Shown here one piece after another: positions 24,509 to 38,758 of a DNA stretch of 44,922 nucleotides. Source of the stretch: an uncultured Opitutia bacterium (GTDB lineage: Bacteria; Verrucomicrobiota; Verrucomicrobiia; Opitutales; CAJWYM01); NCBI GenBank assembly GCA_913049555.1, contig CAJWYM010000021.1, forward strand, positions 1-44,922. Direction: 5' to 3'. A model generated the notes under the pieces. It ran no database searches and was not told where the DNA came from. It saw only the letters and a list, made by a program, of their open reading frames with translations. Made by a program: the position numbers and the translations under genes. The first letter of the stretch is position 1. Each line of letters starts with the position of its first letter.

Positions 24509-27500
24509 TTAAATTTCACTAGATGACAACCAACGAACGGAAACGATTTGAAATTTTCGTCCCATTGTTTTGTTGATAGCACTCAAGTTAATGTCATAGG
24601 GTCTGTTGGATGAATCCATGTATTCTGGGATCCTTTGAACCACTGCTTCACAAATTATATGAGACTTTATTTCCCCACTCGTGGAGTCCTTGCTTTCTCC
24701 ATAGGAGCGTATCGTAAATGTATCTGATCTTGCACTGATTACAGGACTAATAATTCGAAGGAGATCGTTTTGAAGAAGCCATGAATTGTTACCGATCCCT
24801 GTTTTAGGTAATAGATTCTGGCTATTTGAAGTGGAATTCCATAGCTTCGTTAGATTCGTATTATTACCCATGTTAGAAACATTGTTGACTACTGAATCCA
24901 TGGCACTTTGAAGGGCACCAGAAGATCCGAGCGCATTTGCTTCAAGTCTGCGATTTACAAAATCAGAAATACTTTGAAAAGGCCCTCTTCTTTTGATTTG
25001 CGAAACAATTTCATCTGCTAATTGATTGATTTCAGAGCTTGTAAAAGTTCTGAATCCATTCCAACTAGCGGGATCATTCGTATTGGAAACACTTTGAATT
25101 TCAGGACCCATTGGATTTCCAAAGCGAGGAATTTTTGGGGATGAGTTGTTTAAGAGATTCAGGTTTCCATTGGATGCATTGTAGTACTTTTTATCCTTAA
25201 TTTTATCAATTTTACTATTCTTATTAATGGAGGATAATAGAATTTTCCAAGCAGTTTGACTCGTTGAATTGATATTAAATCCTCCATTTACAAACATGCG
25301 CGAGGCAACTTGTTCAGAATGGTTCAAATTCTCCATGTAATCAGACTCAGAATCATTAGAAGATTTAAAAAACTCGAATCTTGAATTAGGCAATACAATT
25401 TGGTCCGACTCAATATCTTCATGACGGACCTCTTTGAAAGGTGGATAAGCTGTATTCCCTTTATTAGGGATTGTTGAAAAAAAGTATTTATCAAACAAAG
25501 CATCATTGTAGAGCCAAGACCAATCCGCTGTGTTTACTTCGTTGTTGAATCGATCTGAATCGGATCCTGCAGTGTAAATTCTGGACATCCGTGCATTGTT
25601 TGCGGAAGATCCATTAGAGAAAGGAGGAGCATAGGAATTTCCGACAGTATACAAGGGAGCAGAGTCAAAGATCCCAATTTCTGAGTGCATAAAATCACCC
25701 ACTGATCTGAGTGGTTGAATTGGAACTTGCTTTGCTACTAAAATGTCGGTTCCTGGTGTATCTATTTCATTTCCCCATTTTGGATTGCCAGTTAAACTCG
25801 CAGGTGAATGCCAAGCTGCAATGTCATTCCAATCTGTATCTGTCTTAAAATCTGAATGCCACAAATCCGAGTGTCCAGAGTTCGTAGAGGGTGTAAAGTG
25901 CCACGCCATGGGATTGAATTGTCCGTAAATGGGAAGATCGCCGTTCAATCCATCCGTAGTTTTCAGATTCATAAAAATATTTAAGGGGAAGTAGGTTTTG
26001 TTATTAGCCCATTCCCAAGATTCAGTAATCCCTCCCATTGAGTAGTCGGCTCTACGTGGGTAGTAAAAATTTTGACCTTCACTTTCATTGTATCTGAAAG
26101 AAGACCCCAGCCGTACCAAAGATCCAAGCGTTGCTTCCGGTTCTGTATCCGAGTCATGAATCAAAAAGGTTGCATTGTTTTCTAAACTTAAAGTGTCGTT
26201 ACTATCCAATATTGAAAGATAAAATCTACCTCCCATCCGAAAGGCCACTGGATCCTCAGACTCAGGGAAATCTGAAGAGTAAAGACTAAAGCCGTGAATC
26301 CTTATTTTTTCAGCCCACGGTCTTCCACCATCGAACATATTGTTTCCTGAGTTACTAACAAAGCTGTTAGGGATCATTGAAATCCCACGCACTCCAAAAT
26401 CATCGGCTACATTATTCGTGGCAATGTTTCCATTCGAATAGTCGTTGGGAAATAAAAAGACTCTACTGAAAGTTTGAAGATTGTTTAGTCCATAATTCCA
26501 ACCAGTTTGACAATTATGGATTCTTGTGGAGCCTGTTGTATCAATATTTAATAATCCGAAACTTTTAACCTCTCCTGGTTCTAAAGACACGTTGGTAATA
26601 TAATGTGCAAGGCTTCTGAAACCGTTGAGGTTGTTGTTTTCTTTGAGGAATGCATAAAAATCAGCTCTTTCGGAGTTGTTGTTTTTAGGAACGACCTCAG
26701 CATTCGTGTAAGTTGGAGCTCCACTATGAGTCATTCCTTTAAAATTGAAAATTTGGGAGGGGGCCCATTCGGGTTTGCTGTATTCAACTGTGTAGGAAAA
26801 ACCAGGATCGAAATGAATTCGATAATTCGAAGCCGAAAGTTTTACGTTGTATGGATTCCACAAAACAAATTGCGGAACAATTTCAAAGTTTAAATGATGA
26901 AAGTTGTCTGAAGAACTCCCCTGTATACTTCCGCTCCAATTAGACATTGCATTCAACCTAATCCGGAATAAAACTTGGGTCACTACAGGAGCGATTGGAT
27001 GAAAACCTGGATCAAATCGGTTTCCATCCTTATCCAGTAAAGATCCCTCAAGAGTTGAAACATGAGTGAATTCTTTTTCAGGGAGAAATTTTCTCATATT
27101 GCCATTGGAATCTTTGACAGTAGAATCAGGGGAAATTTCAGGTTTGTATGAATTTGAGGGATATTCAATCTTTTTGTAGTGATTGTAATAATCAGCCAAA
27201 ACATCCCACTTGACTGATTGAATGGTCTTTGTTACTCCAGCATTCGGATCAGAAATAGTCTCTTGGAAAACATATTTATTTTGAAGTGAATCTTTAAAAT
27301 CAGAATCTAAAGCTCTGCTTAAATCTACCTTTAGGCCTCCGTTTTTAGTATCTGTAAACAGAAGTCTGCTTGATACTGATAAATCATGAAAATACTTACC
27401 CTGGTCTTGTTTGTTCTCGGTGATAAAATCTATAGAGTTTGGAGACAATAGGGAGTCTATCCTGCTTATATTAGACTCATAAATTTCTTTCAATTCAGGC

Positions 27501-28201
27501 AAAATTTCAATGGGATTTCGGTGGGGAAATGAAAATAGTAGATCGTCTACAAGGGCTTTTTTATAACTCGAATTTTCATCCTTGTTATAATCATCAAAGG
27601 AATTAGGAATGCTTACTTTTGCTTTAATTCCTTCGTCAATGACTCCCCAAGCATAGGCACCAATTTGATTTCCTTCACGGTCTTTGACAGGAATTTTCTC
27701 AACCTCAAATTGATATTCATCTATTTTCCCTGAATCTGGATTTGAAATTAAAAGAATTGAGTCCTCTTTATTTTGGGTTGAATCTGCATCCTTTAGATTC
27801 ATCAATCGATCCTGTTTGTCATCGGAACCCTTATTAGAAACCAACCAACCTAAAAACTCTTTTTTCTCAGGCAACTCCGGATTGTAATTACTCGTATTCC
27901 AAACTCCTGTCCAATGGGATTTTTGCGAGGCTGCATGAATCCCACTATCTCCACTTCCGTCCAGTAGATCTGCCTTTGCAGATACACGCTGATCGGGTCC
28001 CATTGTTTTCTGCAACTCTGATAAAGCAATTCCAAGACCAAGCAAGGCATTCAATTTCGCTTTCTCTTGATTCTTATCATTGACAGAATTTTGAGTCTCC
28101 GTTCTAAGCATACTAGACATTGCCAAGATCATGACAAGTATTAGAGAGGACAGGAATAAGGCCACAATCAGAGCGAAGCCTTTATTAGAGGTTTTGGGCA
28201 T
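24509..28201 (-). CDS. Giant Verru_Chthon cassette protein A-like exported protein
   Basis: A 1230-residue protein. The N-terminus KGFALIVALFLSSLILVMIL is a pseudopilin or PilX-like hydrophobic helix. The next region, with LNALLGLGIALSELQKTMGP then DQRVSA, is the pattern I recall from Verru_Chthon cassette protein A (Verrucomicrobia-specific). The long mature part is Ser/Asn-rich, beta-structured and mostly unrecognised. Near the C-terminus an ISDFVNRRLEA segment preceded by IKRRGPFQS is seen, also typical of this family. The usual B, C and D cassette partners are not found nearby. An assembly or surface role is inferred from the pseudopilin-like N-terminus. Confidence 0.82.
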   Translation of the reverse strand: MPKTSNKGFALIVALFLSSLILVMILAMSSMLRTETQNSVNDKNQEKAKLNALLGLGIALSELQKTMGPDQRVSAKADLLDGSGDSGIHAASQKSHWTGVWNTSNYNPELPEKKEFLGWLVSNKGSDDKQDRLMNLKDADSTQNKEDSILLISNPDSGKIDEYQFEVEKIPVKDREGNQIGAYAWGVIDEGIKAKVSIPNSFDDYNKDENSSYKKALVDDLLFSFPHRNPIEILPELKEIYESNISRIDSLLSPNSIDFITENKQDQGKYFHDLSVSSRLLFTDTKNGGLKVDLSRALDSDFKDSLQNKYVFQETISDPNAGVTKTIQSVKWDVLADYYNHYKKIEYPSNSYKPEISPDSTVKDSNGNMRKFLPEKEFTHVSTLEGSLLDKDGNRFDPGFHPIAPVVTQVLFRIRLNAMSNWSGSIQGSSSDNFHHLNFEIVPQFVLWNPYNVKLSASNYRIHFDPGFSYTVEYSKPEWAPSQIFNFKGMTHSGAPTYTNAEVVPKNNNSERADFYAFLKENNNLNGFRSLAHYITNVSLEPGEVKSFGLLNIDTTGSTRIHNCQTGWNYGLNNLQTFSRVFLFPNDYSNGNIATNNVADDFGVRGISMIPNSFVSNSGNNMFDGGRPWAEKIRIHGFSLYSSDFPESEDPVAFRMGGRFYLSILDSNDTLSLENNATFLIHDSDTEPEATLGSLVRLGSSFRYNESEGQNFYYPRRADYSMGGITESWEWANNKTYFPLNIFMNLKTTDGLNGDLPIYGQFNPMAWHFTPSTNSGHSDLWHSDFKTDTDWNDIAAWHSPASLTGNPKWGNEIDTPGTDILVAKQVPIQPLRSVGDFMHSEIGIFDSAPLYTVGNSYAPPFSNGSSANNARMSRIYTAGSDSDRFNNEVNTADWSWLYNDALFDKYFFSTIPNKGNTAYPPFKEVRHEDIESDQIVLPNSRFEFFKSSNDSESDYMENLNHSEQVASRMFVNGGFNINSTSQTAWKILLSSINKNSKIDKIKDKKYYNASNGNLNLLNNSSPKIPRFGNPMGPEIQSVSNTNDPASWNGFRTFTSSEINQLADEIVSQIKRRGPFQSISDFVNRRLEANALGSSGALQSAMDSVVNNVSNMGNNTNLTKLWNSTSNSQNLLPKTGIGNNSWLLQNDLLRIISPVISARSDTFTIRSYGESKDSTSGEIKSHIICEAVVQRIPEYMDSSNRPYDINLSAINKTMGRKFQIVSVRWLSSSEI

Positions 28202-28269: not shown

Positions 28270-30018
28270 TTAGGCTTTGTTTTTCTTTTTATGAGCGTGG
28301 AATTCTGGCCAAGTCAAAGTTCCATCCTTATTTGTATCCGCATCAGGATTTAATTTGAAATATTTGTCTTTCCAATCAGAAGCGCCACTGTCTGCATCTT
28401 GAACTTTTTCAACCGTTTTGGATCCTGGATTTTTAACTTTAGCAGGAACCGTTTTCATAATTTTAGATTTTAGCTTTTGTTTGATGGCATCAAACTCAGG
28501 GTTGTTGGCTAGATTTTTCCATTCATGTTTGTCATTTTTGTGGTTGTACAGTTCCTCGCTACCATCGGAATAATGAATGTAGCGATAATCTTTGGATCTA
28601 GCTGCCAAATGCTGCTTTTGTGGAGATTTACTTTTCCAGCTTGCTTGAATACTAATTGCCACATCCGGTCCTGACCAATCTGTAGTTTCTGGGTTTAGCA
28701 AGAAAGGTTTTAAGCTATTTCCATCCAATTCCACTCCTTGATCATTTCGTTTGTGATCTTTATTCCAATCACACAAGTCTTTTACAGTTGGGAAAATATC
28801 TAAAAGACTCACAGGATGACTGACTTGACTACCCGCATATGCTGAATTTCTGGGATCTTTTATTATCAAGGGCACTTTAGTGCTCTCTTCCCAAAGAGTG
28901 TATTTCCAAAGCTCCTCTTTCTCGCTGATATGGTAACCATGGTCGCTGAATAGTAAAACAATCGTGTTTTCTTTGAATCTACTGTTTTCTATTGCGTCCA
29001 AGGCTACACCTACTTGATCATCAGCAAATTTGATAGATGCCAAATAAGCCTGAGTATAGGCTTTTAAGGCATCCTCTTTAGTTGGGTAACCACTTACAAG
29101 GCCATCAAAAGCCCTTTGTCCACGACTCTTTGAATTATTCAAATTTGCACTTCCTATATCATCTCGGTCATTTTCTTGGGTGATTGGAAGTTTGATTTTA
29201 TCAACAGGAAACAAGTTGAAATACTTTTCTGGAACCACGAGTGGTGTGTGAGGACGGATCAATCCATATCCTATGAAAAATGGTTTAGAATTTGGATTTT
29301 CATCAAGCTCTTGGATTGTTTTTTTCAACCATTCCGCGCTTTTCTCATCGGTCAATAGGTCTCTATCTTCAGCACTGTTATATTTGAACGCAGTTTTACC
29401 AACCCAACCCGAATTGTGCCATCCGGTAAATCCTGAGGTCTTGTCAGTTGAAGGAACAGAAGGCACATCAGACAAAGGAGCAAAAGTAGCATCCAAAGCA
29501 CCCAACTCAGCCATTGCTTTTGGGTTGGAAGGATGGATCACGTTTTTTTTGCCATCCCAAGCCATCGGTCCGTAATCCGCAGGAATTCCTTTTTTAGTCC
29601 ACATATTCGGTCTAGATGTGTGGAGAACTTTGCCGGTTTGCAATGCAGTGTAATCATTGTCTTTAGCGTATTCACCGAGCGTTTTATTGTTTTTAATGAT
29701 CGGGTTGTTCATCCAATTATCAAATCCCCAGCATCCTGAATTCCAAGGAGCTATGCCTGTCATAAAACTAGCTCTAGATGGCGAACAAACAGCAACCGTA
29801 GTATGGGCATTCGTAAAGAGAACTCCAGACCTAGCGAGACGGTCTATATTTGGTGTATCCGCCTGAGGATGTCCCCCTAAAACACCGATATAATCGTTTA
29901 AATCATCCAAAACAATCATCAAAACATTCGGCTTTTCTTGAGAATGCAACGATGGGTTGAAGATGAATAAATTAAGAGTAATTAAATTTCCAAGTAAAAA
30001 AAAGAGGTTCAATTTCAT
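28270..30018 (-). CDS. Secreted type I sulfatase, iduronate-2-sulfatase-like
   Basis: A 582-residue exported sulfatase. A signal peptide covers residues 1 to about 26. The metal-binding D38-D39 occurs in VLDDLNDY, the formylglycine motif is C78-S-P-S-R, and SDHGYHISEKEELWKY holds the second metal site. The wide spacing and the DDLNDY variant resemble iduronate-2-sulfatase-like S1 members. The C-terminus ends with an EF-hand-like loop, DADTNKDGTLTWPEF. The cysteine must be converted to formylglycine by a maturase not present in this window. The leader is only A/T-rich; see the promoter entry. It is followed on the same strand by the giant protein. Confidence 0.93.
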   Translation of the reverse strand: MKLNLFFLLGNLITLNLFIFNPSLHSQEKPNVLMIVLDDLNDYIGVLGGHPQADTPNIDRLARSGVLFTNAHTTVAVCSPSRASFMTGIAPWNSGCWGFDNWMNNPIIKNNKTLGEYAKDNDYTALQTGKVLHTSRPNMWTKKGIPADYGPMAWDGKKNVIHPSNPKAMAELGALDATFAPLSDVPSVPSTDKTSGFTGWHNSGWVGKTAFKYNSAEDRDLLTDEKSAEWLKKTIQELDENPNSKPFFIGYGLIRPHTPLVVPEKYFNLFPVDKIKLPITQENDRDDIGSANLNNSKSRGQRAFDGLVSGYPTKEDALKAYTQAYLASIKFADDQVGVALDAIENSRFKENTIVLLFSDHGYHISEKEELWKYTLWEESTKVPLIIKDPRNSAYAGSQVSHPVSLLDIFPTVKDLCDWNKDHKRNDQGVELDGNSLKPFLLNPETTDWSGPDVAISIQASWKSKSPQKQHLAARSKDYRYIHYSDGSEELYNHKNDKHEWKNLANNPEFDAIKQKLKSKIMKTVPAKVKNPGSKTVEKVQDADSGASDWKDKYFKLNPDADTNKDGTLTWPEFHAHKKKNKA

Positions 30019-33860: not shown

Positions 33861-35555
33861 TTACAGATCTCTTTGTAATAGGATTTGCTCTTTCAATGCG
33901 TAAGGATAATTGGGGGCAATTTTCAAAGCTTTTTTTAGCAAATCCATTGCTTTATCACGTTTGCCTTGAATTCTAAATAGAGTTGCTAAAGAGACATAGG
34001 CATTTGGCTTATAGGGACTTAAATGGATTGCCTGGTTGTAAGCTTTTATGGCTAAGTCAAATTTACCCATCCTAGAAGCTGTAACGCCTAAATTTAAAAA
34101 GGCATTGCGGTGGTTGGGTTCCAATTCGATTGATTTTTTCAGAGATTCAATTGCTTTTTTAAATTGTTTTAGATTACAAAAGGCCAGTCCAATATTTGAA
34201 TGGGCATCTGCAAGATTTGGATTCAATGAAAGGGCCTTATCAAAATGATCTATGGCCTTTTTCGAATCGCCATTTAGGATTAAATGACTGCCTAAATTGT
34301 TCCAAGCTCTTGCATTTTTTGGCTGTTTTTGAGTAATGTCCTCCCATATTTTCTCAGTGGATTGATACACTTTATTTCTCTCAATGGTATTGAACCCCAA
34401 AAAAACAAGAGTACCAAAATAAAGGAGGAATCCTATTTTATTAAAATTTTTATTCGGTTTTATTTTAGAAACCACATAAATAGATAATACCAAAAAACTT
34501 ATGAGTGCAGCTAAAGGAAGTACAAATCTATGCTCGGCTGCGACTGAGGTTTGTATGGGAACAAATGACGATGTGGGTCCTAGAACTAAGAACAAAAAAA
34601 GAATCGGATAAAAAATTTTCCATTTTTTAAAAAATGCAGACCACAAGCTAACAATCAAAATGACTGACAAACTCAATCCATAGGCCCAAAATTCCTTGAT
34701 GGATACCTCGGGGGCCATATAGTCAATACAAAGATTTAAAGGCCACAGGCTCAGGCTTATATATTTCCAAATAAATTTCCACTGCATCATAAAATAATCT
34801 GAAGAGGAAATAAGACTCGTTCCAACACTGGCATTTCTAGGGTACAAATACATCCAGAGAGCAAGAATCAGCCAAGTTGAAAACAAACCCATCAATAGAA
34901 TTCTTTTTTCTTTAAATTGTCTTTTAAAAGAAATCCCGTAGACATTTGAATAAAGAAGCATGACAGCAATTGGAGCTGTAAACATAGATTCCTTACTGCT
35001 CATTCCCAATGCACAAAAGACAATTGCATAGCTATAATTCCTGTAAGAAGGATTTTTTAAGACTGCAATCGAGTAATACAAAGTCAGGATATAAAAAAGG
35101 ATCATGAAACCTTCAGCTCGTTGAACTGTATAGGTAACTACATTGGTTCCTAAGGGGTGCACCAACCAAAGAGAGGAAATAACAAAAGCTAAGTAAATGG
35201 TCGTGGATCGGATGAAAAATAAGTCCTCTAGGAGCCTCTGAAGAAGTTTAAAAAGAAAGCAGGCGGAGAGAATGTGAATACTCAGATTGAATAAATGGTA
35301 TCCCCGAACGTTTAAATCCCCAACCGCATAGTTTAAAGCAAGGCTTAAACATACAACAGGTCTACCCCAAGGAGTTTCATCTTCTCCGACCTGCATTATA
35401 TTTTGGATAGGCCATAAAGATCGGATGGCAGGATTTTCAACGATCCCCAAAATATCATCAAATAAAAATGGGGTTTCAATCGCTCCAGTATAACAAATCA
35501 GAGCTAGCAAAATATAAATTTTCCAGTAATGGCGAATCAATAAGTGATCAATCAT
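33861..35555 (-). CDS. TMTC-like GT-C membrane protein with C-terminal TPRs
   Basis: A 564-residue protein. Residues 1 to about 385 hold about ten to twelve hydrophobic helices with an early acidic site in FLFDDILGIVENP, the pattern of GT-C dolichyl or polyprenyl-phosphate-dependent glycosyltransferases. The conserved first-loop DD acts as catalytic acid in that fold. Residues about 400-560 hold four to five TPR units (NARAWNNLGSHLILNGDSKK, DAHSNIGLAFCNLKQFKKAI). This layout resembles eukaryotic TMTC O-mannosyltransferases and their bacterial relatives. A role in protein or surface O-glycosylation is inferred. The gene is convergent with the sugar operon across the palindromic element. Confidence 0.83.
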   Translation of the reverse strand: MIDHLLIRHYWKIYILLALICYTGAIETPFLFDDILGIVENPAIRSLWPIQNIMQVGEDETPWGRPVVCLSLALNYAVGDLNVRGYHLFNLSIHILSACFLFKLLQRLLEDLFFIRSTTIYLAFVISSLWLVHPLGTNVVTYTVQRAEGFMILFYILTLYYSIAVLKNPSYRNYSYAIVFCALGMSSKESMFTAPIAVMLLYSNVYGISFKRQFKEKRILLMGLFSTWLILALWMYLYPRNASVGTSLISSSDYFMMQWKFIWKYISLSLWPLNLCIDYMAPEVSIKEFWAYGLSLSVILIVSLWSAFFKKWKIFYPILFLFLVLGPTSSFVPIQTSVAAEHRFVLPLAALISFLVLSIYVVSKIKPNKNFNKIGFLLYFGTLVFLGFNTIERNKVYQSTEKIWEDITQKQPKNARAWNNLGSHLILNGDSKKAIDHFDKALSLNPNLADAHSNIGLAFCNLKQFKKAIESLKKSIELEPNHRNAFLNLGVTASRMGKFDLAIKAYNQAIHLSPYKPNAYVSLATLFRIQGKRDKAMDLLKKALKIAPNYPYALKEQILLQRDL

Positions 35556-35875: not shown

Positions 35876-38758
35876 ATGAATACAGAATTAAATATGAAAA
35901 AAATAACAATCGCTGCGTCTATCTGGCTGATTGTCTTTTTGACAAATCTCCTAAACGCAGATGATATTATATCAATTCTTAGTAAAAAACAAAACCAGCA
36001 TTTAAGTATCTGCGAAAAAGGTACGATCCGGTTTTCAAAATCTTTCAACACAGATGTTGAATTTATATTAGAACCGTCTGATACAGGAACTTTTAGAATT
36101 TACCATAAGAACAGCCATCTTTACCTAAATCCAATCAGTTCCTACAACTTTGGAGAGGTTGGCCTAAAACCACTGGAAAATTCATCTCCTTATTTTTTAT
36201 GGGAAATCATTGAAATTGAGGGATCAGAGCATTCGCATTTAAGGAATGTGGGGAGTGGGTTTTATTTAGCCTCATTCGATTCTTCGGCACTCGTTCATGC
36301 AAAAGGGAAGAATGAAACATTACGATTTGATGCTTATCAGTTCGCAATAGATAGAATTCCGGATAGCGATGGAGATGGCTATCTAGATTCTCAAGATTCT
36401 TTTCCAGAAAATGGATCGGAGTGGATCGATTCAGATTTTGATGGATTGGGGAATAATTCGGACTCAGACGACGACAATGATGGGGTGGATGATGAGAACG
36501 ATGAGGAACCGCTCCATTACAGTAGGGATATTACGAAATTTATTCTTCACAACGTTAAAACGGATACCCGCTTGACTTTAGATTCTAGTGGGCAACCTGT
36601 TTTAACCAGTCAAAAGGATTCCAGCACCTATTTTCAAAAAGACTATATGTTTGATTATGGTGGTTTTGAAATCAGACATGTTGAAACCGGATCTTGCTTG
36701 ACGACAACCCAAAGATGGAATTGGGGAAAAGTGGGAATGGCTGAACCAAATGGTGAGTCGGATTTTATATGGATCTTTGAAAAAATCCCAGGAACGGAAA
36801 ACGTTCGATTGCTCAACGCAGGGAGCGATTTATATGCCTTTAAATTTAATAATGAAATCAAACAAGCAGTCTTAGCGCATTGGATGCCCTCTGAGTGGAG
36901 GGTAGAATATATCACAAGTTCTACGAAGGATTCTGACAACGATTCTTTTACAGATATTGAAGAGTATGAACTTGGATCTGATCCTTTTGATGCAAATGTG
37001 ACTGTTTTTGACTATGACAATGACGGGATTAGTGATGTTGCTGATTTAGATGATGACAACGACGGAATCAGTGACAAAGATGAGATTTCCATGGGCACAT
37101 GCAGATTATTGGCAGACAGCGATGGGGATGGCTTGGATGATTTAAGTGACTTAAACCCATTGGAGCCTGATTTTCTTAATCTGCCGAGCCATTTTCAAGC
37201 TGGCACTCCTCATGATGGTGAAAAACCAAATATTCTTTTTATTTTAGTGGATGATTTGAATGATTTTATCTCTCCATTAAATCCTGAAATACCAGTAATC
37301 ACACCCAATCTCGATTTACTTGCATCCAAATCTACTATTTTTAAAAGAGCCTACTCCAATGCACCTGTCTGTGGTCCTTCAAGAGCGAGTATATTTTCAG
37401 GGATTTTACCTAGTGTCTCAGGGAAATATATAAAAGGGAATTGGTATGATCATGAGGTGTTGACCAATAGTTACACCATTATGGAACAATTATCTAGGCA
37501 TGGATACCATTCTGCTGGGGTTGGAAAGTTACTACACAAGGAGGTTCCAGCTCTTTGGGATGATTCTGGTTTGAAAGGGGATTATTCTCCGTTAGCAGCT
37601 AATAAAGAGGGTTGGACTGTGCATCCAGAAATGCCAGCACGCTTCAGTGAAGTTGCTGGTCCCTTGGATGGTATTTTCACTTCTTTAGAAAATGTGCCTG
37701 TTATTGATGGGATAAAAGGATGGAGAACCTCCAACTACAGGAAACTGTATGATTTTACAGGGGATAATCCAGATTTGTTACCGGACGAAACTTCAGTTGA
37801 ATGGGCAAAAAATATAATGAAACAAAGGAGCCAAGGCTCCATCGAAAAGCCATTCTTTTTAAGTGTTGGACTGATTCGTCCTCACACCCCCTTGGTCGCT
37901 CCTCAAGAATACTTTGACATGTATCCACTGGATAGTTTTGAGATTCCAGATTTCGATGAAGCTGATGATGCAGATACTCATCTGGAAGATCTATACATTG
38001 GAGAATCGAAAGGTAGAGCGATCTTCAATTCTCTTATGGATTCCTATGAAACTAAAGAAGAGGCTATGGAGCAATTAAAGCTTTATTATCAAGCCTATTT
38101 GGCCTGTATCACTTTTATGGATAAACAAGTAGGAGATCTTATTTCTGGTTTGGAAACCTATGGCTTGGATAAGAATACAGTGGTAGTATTCACCAGTGAC
38201 CATGGATACACTCTCGGAGAGAAGCAGTACCTTATGAAATATAATTTATGGGAAAGCTCAACACGGGTCCCTCTTATCATTCATGACCCAAGGCATGGAT
38301 TCGCTCAGGAAATTGATGAAGTCGTTAGTTTAATTGATCTTTATCCAACATTGACTCAACTAGGGGACGCACAAAAGATGGATAATTTGATAACAGAGAA
38401 GGGTCACAAACCAAATGGCCGTAGTTTATTACCGCTCCTTTGGGGAACTGAAGCAAGCGTTGACAGTTCTGATTACTCAGAGCGTTATGCTCTGTCTCAA
38501 GTAACTGCTTTAAAGTCCATCGGATCCTTAGGAAATCGATACGCATACAATTCTTCCGGAACGGCTATTCGGTCAAAAGATTGGAGATATATTTTATATG
38601 CGAATGGCAAAGAGGAACTGTATTGTCACAACGCTGAGAATTATGATCTTTACGATCCAAATGAGAGAACGAATTTATCTGATGAACCTTTTTGTGAAAA
38701 TGTAAAATTGGAATTGAGACAAAAATTACAGGCTCTACTCATAAGCGCAAAAGAATAG
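35876..38758 (+). CDS. Modular secreted sulfatase: two trefoil-like domains, TSP3 repeats, sulfatase
   Basis: A 960-residue exported protein. The signal peptide ends near NLLNA (residue 28); the start could also be the ATG at 35894. Residues about 30-158 and 215-347 are two similar modules shaped like beta-trefoils; NFGEVGLKPLENSSPYFLWE and NWGKVGMAEPNGESDFIWIF correspond, as do LRNVGSGFYLASF and LLNAGSDLYAFKF. Asp-rich TSP3-type calcium loops (DSDGDGYLD, DSDDDNDGVDDE; DYDNDGISD, DSDGDGLDD) follow each module, at 162-210 and 350-425. The sulfatase domain starts at 450 with D459-D460 and the formylglycine motif C499-G-P-S-R. SDHGYTLGEKQYLMKY is the second metal site. The trefoil part may bind glycans and direct the catalytic domain. 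Confidence 0.9.
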   Translation: MNTELNMKKITIAASIWLIVFLTNLLNADDIISILSKKQNQHLSICEKGTIRFSKSFNTDVEFILEPSDTGTFRIYHKNSHLYLNPISSYNFGEVGLKPLENSSPYFLWEIIEIEGSEHSHLRNVGSGFYLASFDSSALVHAKGKNETLRFDAYQFAIDRIPDSDGDGYLDSQDSFPENGSEWIDSDFDGLGNNSDSDDDNDGVDDENDEEPLHYSRDITKFILHNVKTDTRLTLDSSGQPVLTSQKDSSTYFQKDYMFDYGGFEIRHVETGSCLTTTQRWNWGKVGMAEPNGESDFIWIFEKIPGTENVRLLNAGSDLYAFKFNNEIKQAVLAHWMPSEWRVEYITSSTKDSDNDSFTDIEEYELGSDPFDANVTVFDYDNDGISDVADLDDDNDGISDKDEISMGTCRLLADSDGDGLDDLSDLNPLEPDFLNLPSHFQAGTPHDGEKPNILFILVDDLNDFISPLNPEIPVITPNLDLLASKSTIFKRAYSNAPVCGPSRASIFSGILPSVSGKYIKGNWYDHEVLTNSYTIMEQLSRHGYHSAGVGKLLHKEVPALWDDSGLKGDYSPLAANKEGWTVHPEMPARFSEVAGPLDGIFTSLENVPVIDGIKGWRTSNYRKLYDFTGDNPDLLPDETSVEWAKNIMKQRSQGSIEKPFFLSVGLIRPHTPLVAPQEYFDMYPLDSFEIPDFDEADDADTHLEDLYIGESKGRAIFNSLMDSYETKEEAMEQLKLYYQAYLACITFMDKQVGDLISGLETYGLDKNTVVVFTSDHGYTLGEKQYLMKYNLWESSTRVPLIIHDPRHGFAQEIDEVVSLIDLYPTLTQLGDAQKMDNLITEKGHKPNGRSLLPLLWGTEASVDSSDYSERYALSQVTALKSIGSLGNRYAYNSSGTAIRSKDWRYILYANGKEELYCHNAENYDLYDPNERTNLSDEPFCENVKLELRQKLQALLISAKE

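What the first reader, a model, noticed from the sequence alone, without database searches (positions are those of the whole stretch)
35876..38758. Sulfatase fused to duplicated trefoil-like modules and calcium-loop stalks
Two similar ~125-residue modules, each followed by an Asp-rich TSP3-type segment, precede a complete sulfatase with the CGPSR motif. The internal duplication is plain (N-x-G-x-VG...WE/WI, LRNVGSGFYLA/LLNAGSDLYAF). Carbohydrate-recognising modules on a sulfatase imply substrate targeting on a polymer surface. I do not recall this exact architecture.
Basis: partly seen in the sequence, partly recalled or inferred. Interest (0 to 1): 0.65.

Follow-up and report, generated by a model that had tools for sequence, protein, structure and literature searches.

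The report
Sulfatase with two divergent trefoil modules
A bacterium with a very large set of sulfatases makes one secreted sulfatase that carries two lectin-like modules on calcium-binding stalks, probably to hold the enzyme on a sulfated polysaccharide; the parts are known, the combination was not seen in several hundred related genomes, and sugar binding by the modules is unproven.

Summary
Window 35876-38758 (+) is one 960-aa open frame: signal peptide, module 1, Asp-rich TSP3-type segment, module 2 (clearly a copy of module 1), longer TSP3-type segment, then an S1 sulfatase with every catalytic motif checked, including CGPSR. The modules are most likely divergent ricin-type beta-trefoils. 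Pfam RicinB_lectin_2 reaches 26.8 bits (cut-off 25.6) when both are given together. An HMM of lectin domains from the same phylum scores module 1 far above 3000 shuffles, module 2 only just. All four non-self hits of the module profile in 388 genomes of the phylum lie on recognised RicinB domains. AlphaFold2 failed twice for lack of homologues (pLDDT 32-34), so the fold rests on sequence profiles. The canonical QxW and Asp sugar-binding signature is absent, so 'carbohydrate-recognising' is plausible but not shown. No clear homologue of the modules was found; the nearest sulfatases (37-42% identity) nearly all lack room for them. Related sulfatases with a C-terminal CBM-like domain, and a sulfatase-GH16 fusion in the same genome, show that such add-ons recur. 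Verdict: a new variant of a known kind, moderately interesting.

The parts
35876..35956 (+). Signal peptide (residues 1-27; a second in-frame ATG at residue 7, MKKITI, may be the true start)
   Evidence: Sequence: KK, then a hydrophobic run IAASIWLIVFLTNLLNA. No signal-peptide predictor was run.
35957..36355 (+). Module 1 (residues 28-160), divergent ricin-type beta-trefoil
   Evidence: PF14200 subthreshold alone; 19.7 bits against an HMM of lectin domains of the same phylum, best of 3000 shuffles 6.5
36356..36523 (+). First Asp-rich TSP3-type calcium-loop segment (residues 161-216)
   Evidence: Three DxDxDG-type loops; TSP3 matches
36524..36925 (+). Module 2 (residues 217-350), copy of module 1
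   Evidence: Alignment to module 1, Z 12; PF14200 and CDtoxinA weak; 11.9 bits, best shuffle 11.5
36926..37201 (+). Second TSP3-type segment (residues 351-442)
   Evidence: Four DxDxDG-type loops; TSP3_bac best stretch at residues 392-408
37217..38755 (+). S1 formylglycine sulfatase domain (residues 448-960)
   Evidence: PF00884 1.5e-43 and SGSH_C; best solved relatives iduronate-2-sulfatase 5fql and arylsulfatase 6hhm
37370..37384 (+). CGPSR sulfatase signature (Cys 499, formylglycine precursor)
   Evidence: Motif position, aligned with the CxPSR site of 6hhm

Best explanation
A secreted S1 sulfatase in which a duplicated, divergent ricin-type beta-trefoil module and two calcium-stiffened TSP3-type stalks have been added in front of an ordinary catalytic domain. 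After export, the stalks become rigid by binding calcium. The two trefoils hold the enzyme on an insoluble or gel-like sulfated glycan and space the catalytic domain to remove sulfate from nearby sugars. Shown: the domain order, the duplication, the intact catalytic motifs and FGE-family genes in the genome. Supported by sequence profiles only: the trefoil fold and the TSP3 nature. Inferred: secretion, stalk stiffness, glycan binding, and the substrate (an algal-type sulfated polysaccharide).
For: Duplication Z 12. RicinB_lectin_2 26.8 bits over cut-off 25.6 for the two modules together, with two further trefoil families (CDtoxinA, FGF) as weak hits. The profile of the two modules, searched in 388 genomes of the phylum, hit outside the window only four places, and all four coincide with PF14200 domains found independently; the one scanned sits in a Glyco_hydro_cc protein. 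hhalign probability 90.7 against two of those domains. A lectin HMM from the phylum scores module 1 at 19.7 bits and module 2 at 11.9, against at most 6.5 and 11.5 for 3000 shuffles of each. Catalytic motifs DDLND, CGPSR, GKLLH, RPHTPL, TSDHGY and a following Lys are present and align with iduronate-2-sulfatase and 6hhm. Three FGE-family genes in the genome. 167 sulfatase-matching stretches in the 3.1 Mb genome, some genes being matched in two pieces.
Against: No confident structure. Profile search of solved structures with the two modules gives only chance WD-repeat hits. Module 2 is barely above the best shuffle. The glutamine of QxW is Phe in both modules, the binding Asp is Asn or Thr in the aligned repeats, and the disulphide cysteines of ricin-B domains are missing. 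No polysaccharide-degrading neighbours that would name a substrate.
Confidence: 0.55

Rival explanations
1. The two trefoils are structural or protein-binding modules: they anchor the enzyme to the producer's own surface or to a partner protein and bind no sugar. The stalks set the distance of the catalytic domain from the cell.
For: The canonical sugar-binding signature is missing in both modules in the same way (F-x-W in place of Q-x-W). TSP3-type segments occur in several proteins of other functions in the same order, which matched the query through that part (two read).
Against: The closest recognisable domains sit on a carbohydrase, and a RicinB-esterase gene lies directly behind a sulfatase gene in another genome of the phylum. 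Loss of the signature does not exclude binding; aromatic residues other than Trp can serve (PMC11212257).
Confidence: 0.3
2. The modules are not trefoils but another beta-rich fold, and the lectin similarity is chance or convergent.
For: Low AlphaFold2 confidence, marginal Pfam score, no solved-structure match.
Against: Profile evidence from both directions and co-linear alignment over about two repeats of the lectin HMM.
Confidence: 0.12

Closest known systems
Family S1 formylglycine sulfatases; best solved relatives iduronate-2-sulfatase (5fql, 6ioz) and arylsulfatase 6hhm (recalled as an ulvan-active S1_7 enzyme of Formosa agariphila)
   Same: Complete catalytic domain with the CxPSR signature and the catalytic motifs checked
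   Different: Those structures match over the catalytic domain only; the N-terminal trefoils and TSP3 stalks have no counterpart there. Subfamily not tested with SulfAtlas.
Ricin-B / CBM13 beta-trefoil lectins (Pfam PF14200 RicinB_lectin_2)
   Same: About 130 residues; about two repeats align to lectin HMMs
   Different: No QxW at the equivalent place, no conserved Asp, no disulphide cysteines, marginal score
Multimodular sulfatases such as P36 of Formosa agariphila (GH78 joined to S1_25; PMC8511951)
   Same: A sulfatase joined to another module for work on a sulfated polysaccharide
   Different: P36 joins two catalytic domains; here the added parts are non-catalytic and N-terminal
Sulfatases of the same order with a C-terminal CBM_4_9-like domain (L084, L085)
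   Same: Related sulfatase domain (40-42% identity) carrying a probable carbohydrate-binding module
   Different: The module is C-terminal and of another family (below cut-off), not an N-terminal trefoil
TSP3 repeats (thrombospondin/COMP; Pfam TSP3_bac)
   Same: DxDxDG-type loops in series
   Different: Used here as linkers between lectin-like modules and a sulfatase; family score below cut-off

Membership tests
S1 formylglycine sulfatase | Sulfatase family match over the catalytic domain | tested here: met
   PF00884 1.5e-43, SGSH_C over cut-off
S1 formylglycine sulfatase | C/S-x-P-S-R signature and metal- and substrate-site motifs | tested here: met
   CGPSR 499, DDLND 459, GKLLH 550, RPHTPL 668, TSDHGY 773, K in QYLMK 784
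S1 formylglycine sulfatase | Maturation enzyme available | tested here: met
   Three PF03781 genes in the genome; which of them is a true FGE was not tested
S1 formylglycine sulfatase | Sulfatase activity | not testable with these tools
   Needs an assay
Subfamily S1_7 | Groups with S1_7 in SulfAtlas | not tested
   Only nearest solved structures were seen
Ricin-B / CBM13 lectin | Profile match over the curated cut-off | tested here: inconclusive
   26.8 over 25.6 bits with both modules together; each alone below (17.8, 15.0)
Ricin-B / CBM13 lectin | QxW motif in the repeats | tested here: not met
   F-x-W in both modules; the only QxW (QRW in module 2) lies at another place; definition from PMC11212257
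Ricin-B / CBM13 lectin | Two cysteines per repeat | tested here: not met
   One cysteine in each module
Ricin-B / CBM13 lectin | Beta-trefoil fold | tested here: inconclusive
   AlphaFold2 pLDDT 32 and 34; HMM alignment over about two repeats
Ricin-B / CBM13 lectin | Carbohydrate binding | not testable with these tools
   Needs a binding assay
TSP3 repeat | Serial DxDxDG calcium loops | tested here: met
   Seven loops in two segments
TSP3 repeat | Profile match over the curated cut-off | tested here: not met
   TSP3_bac 17.3 against 25 bits; TSP_3 11.3 against 25

The most novel reading that the evidence does not exclude
The two modules are a new trefoil binding family that has lost the classical ricin site and recognises a sulfated glycan by another surface, so that this sulfatase acts on intact polymer while held on it.
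Probability: 0.25. Interest if true: 0.5.

Novelty: new variant of a known kind. Interest (0 to 1): 0.33.

Why it matters
Most bacterial sulfatases are single-domain, and for many it is open whether they act on intact polymer or on released oligosaccharides (own knowledge). A sulfatase with built-in candidate binding modules on stiff stalks would be a natural test of polymer-level action, and the modules could become a probe for a sulfated glycan. The find also shows that sulfatase-rich genomes assemble new sulfatase architectures beside simple gene duplication.

Tried and rejected
AlphaFold2 on residues 28-450 alone and on module 1 aligned with module 2 gave no usable model, so no fold search was run. 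Search of solved structures with the module profile gave chance WD-repeat hits only. Homologues of the modules: none in viral contigs, plasmids or PHROGs. Of the genome contigs relatives found with the whole protein, the matches begin at or just before the sulfatase part, and none scored with the lectin HMM. In 373 genomes of the order the module profile gave only two weak hits, one with stops in frame, which I did not inspect; earlier hits in the order were mainly to the TSP3 part. Of 30 RicinB loci fetched from the phylum (one per genome), none carries a sulfatase in the same frame within the stretch held; one has a sulfatase gene next door. Chimeric assembly was rejected because composition is even. 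Promoter and terminator scans were at chance level or near it. Literature searches gave no report of a trefoil-TSP3-sulfatase; the library holds open-licence papers only.

Full report
What is there. The open frame at 35876-38758 (+) encodes 960 residues without interruption. In order: a signal-peptide-like start, module 1 (residues 28-160), an Asp-rich segment (161-216), module 2 (217-350), a longer Asp-rich segment (351-442) and a sulfatase (448-960). GC and GC3 are similar along the gene and to its neighbours, so it does not look like two wrongly joined pieces.

Duplication. The two modules are 26% identical over 152 columns. Their local alignment scores 91 against a mean of 28 and sd of 5 for shuffles (0 of 2000 reach it). 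The strongest shared stretch is D-x-G-x-F-x-I-x-H ... N-[FW]-G-[EK]-V-G ... F-[LI]-W ... I-x-G-[ST]-E ... L-x-N-x-G-S.

Nature of the modules. Each module alone matches RicinB_lectin_2 below its cut-off (17.8 and 15.0 bits); together they pass it (26.8 against 25.6). Two other trefoil families, CDtoxinA and FGF, appear as weak hits in the same call. I tested this in both directions. A profile of the two modules, run over 388 genomes of the phylum, found four places outside the window. A separate search of the phylum with PF14200 marks RicinB domains at all four. The locus scanned is a large protein with a Glyco_hydro_cc carbohydrase domain. In the other direction, an HMM built only from RicinB domains of the phylum gave module 1 19.7 bits and module 2 11.9 bits; reversed modules scored about -1, and the best of 3000 shuffles of each scored 6.5 and 11.5. 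Module 1 is therefore well supported, and module 2 is carried mainly by its similarity to module 1. AlphaFold2 gave no usable model with one or two sequences, and a profile search of solved structures found only chance hits. The fold is thus probable, not shown.

Do they bind sugar? Ricin-B and CBM13 domains are characterised by QxW motifs and cysteine pairs in their repeats (PMC11212257). Here the Q is Phe in both modules (FLW, FIW), the Asp of the 'LD' site is Asn or Thr in the aligned repeats, and there is one cysteine per module. In the lectin set of the phylum, 33 of 51 domains keep a QxW. So the classical sites are not conserved.

Stalks. Seven DxDxDG-type loops lie in the two segments, three in the first and four in the second, against 0.7 and 0.5 expected on shuffling. 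The TSP3 family scores are below cut-off, but the segments match a TSP3 protein model in NCBIfam (9e-7) and COMP (0.017).

Enzyme. PF00884 covers residues 451-830 (1.5e-43) and SGSH_C 781-954. The motifs DDLND, CGPSR, GKLLH, RPHTPL and TSDHGY and a following Lys are present and align with iduronate-2-sulfatase and 6hhm. The genome carries three FGE-family genes. The catalytic domain should be active after formylglycine formation. Its best solved relatives suggest the S1_7 region of the family, but I did not test the subfamily.

Setting. The genome (3.1 Mb, 102 contigs) shows 167 stretches that match this sulfatase, some genes in two pieces. In the window another sulfatase lies at 28270-30018 (-), with an AraC-type regulator, two Gfo/Idh/MocA oxidoreductases and a xylose-isomerase-like protein nearby. 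The gene itself stands alone, 320 bases from the divergent gene before it and about 800 bases from the next gene, so no operon names its substrate. No other genome of its family is held.

How unusual is it? In 373 genomes of the order the nearest sulfatases are 37-42% identical and, with two exceptions, sit in frames of 518-657 aa, too short to hold the modules. The two exceptions, L084 and L085, have a C-terminal domain like CBM_4_9 (below cut-off). None of 30 RicinB loci of the phylum has a sulfatase in the same frame within the stretch held. In one genome a RicinB-esterase-SGL gene directly follows a sulfatase gene (L121). Known multimodular sulfatases include P36, GH78 joined to S1_25 (PMC8511951). 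I found no report of a trefoil-TSP3-sulfatase in the papers searched, which are open-licence only.

Mechanism. The best-supported reading is a secreted sulfatase held on a sulfated polymer by two trefoils on calcium-stiffened stalks. Secretion, stalk stiffness and glycan binding are inferred; domain order, duplication and catalytic completeness are shown. The main rival is that the trefoils no longer bind sugar and serve as spacers or protein anchors.

Verdict. Real; a new combination of known parts, not a new kind of system.

Noticed in passing
L120:2753-5281 (-), in G000 contig C46: In the same genome, an 842-aa sulfatase fused to a GH16 laminarinase-type domain (PF00884 4e-43, PF00722 4e-23), with CAPSR and the GH16 EIDIME motif present. 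A sulfatase joined to a beta-1,3-glucanase-like enzyme hints at a sulfated glucan-type substrate; it may be more interesting than the finding itself.
   Followed up: partly
L084:143-2749 (+) and L085:470-3076 (-): Two related sulfatases of the order carry a C-terminal CBM_4_9-like domain and a further C-terminal stretch, an independent case of a sulfatase with a probable binding module.
   Followed up: partly
L121:624-4471: A sulfatase gene followed after about 40 bases by a RicinB-esterase-SGL gene on the same strand in another genome of the phylum.
   Followed up: no
28270-30018 (-): A second sulfatase in the window, 40% identical to this one, with a C-terminal EF-hand-like end (DADTNKDGTLTWPEF).
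   Followed up: partly
24509-28201 (-): A 1230-aa protein with an N-terminal hydrophobic, pilin-like segment and no Pfam match.
   Followed up: no
33861-35555 (-): A 564-aa membrane protein with C-terminal TPR repeats, placed divergently to the sulfatase.
   Followed up: no
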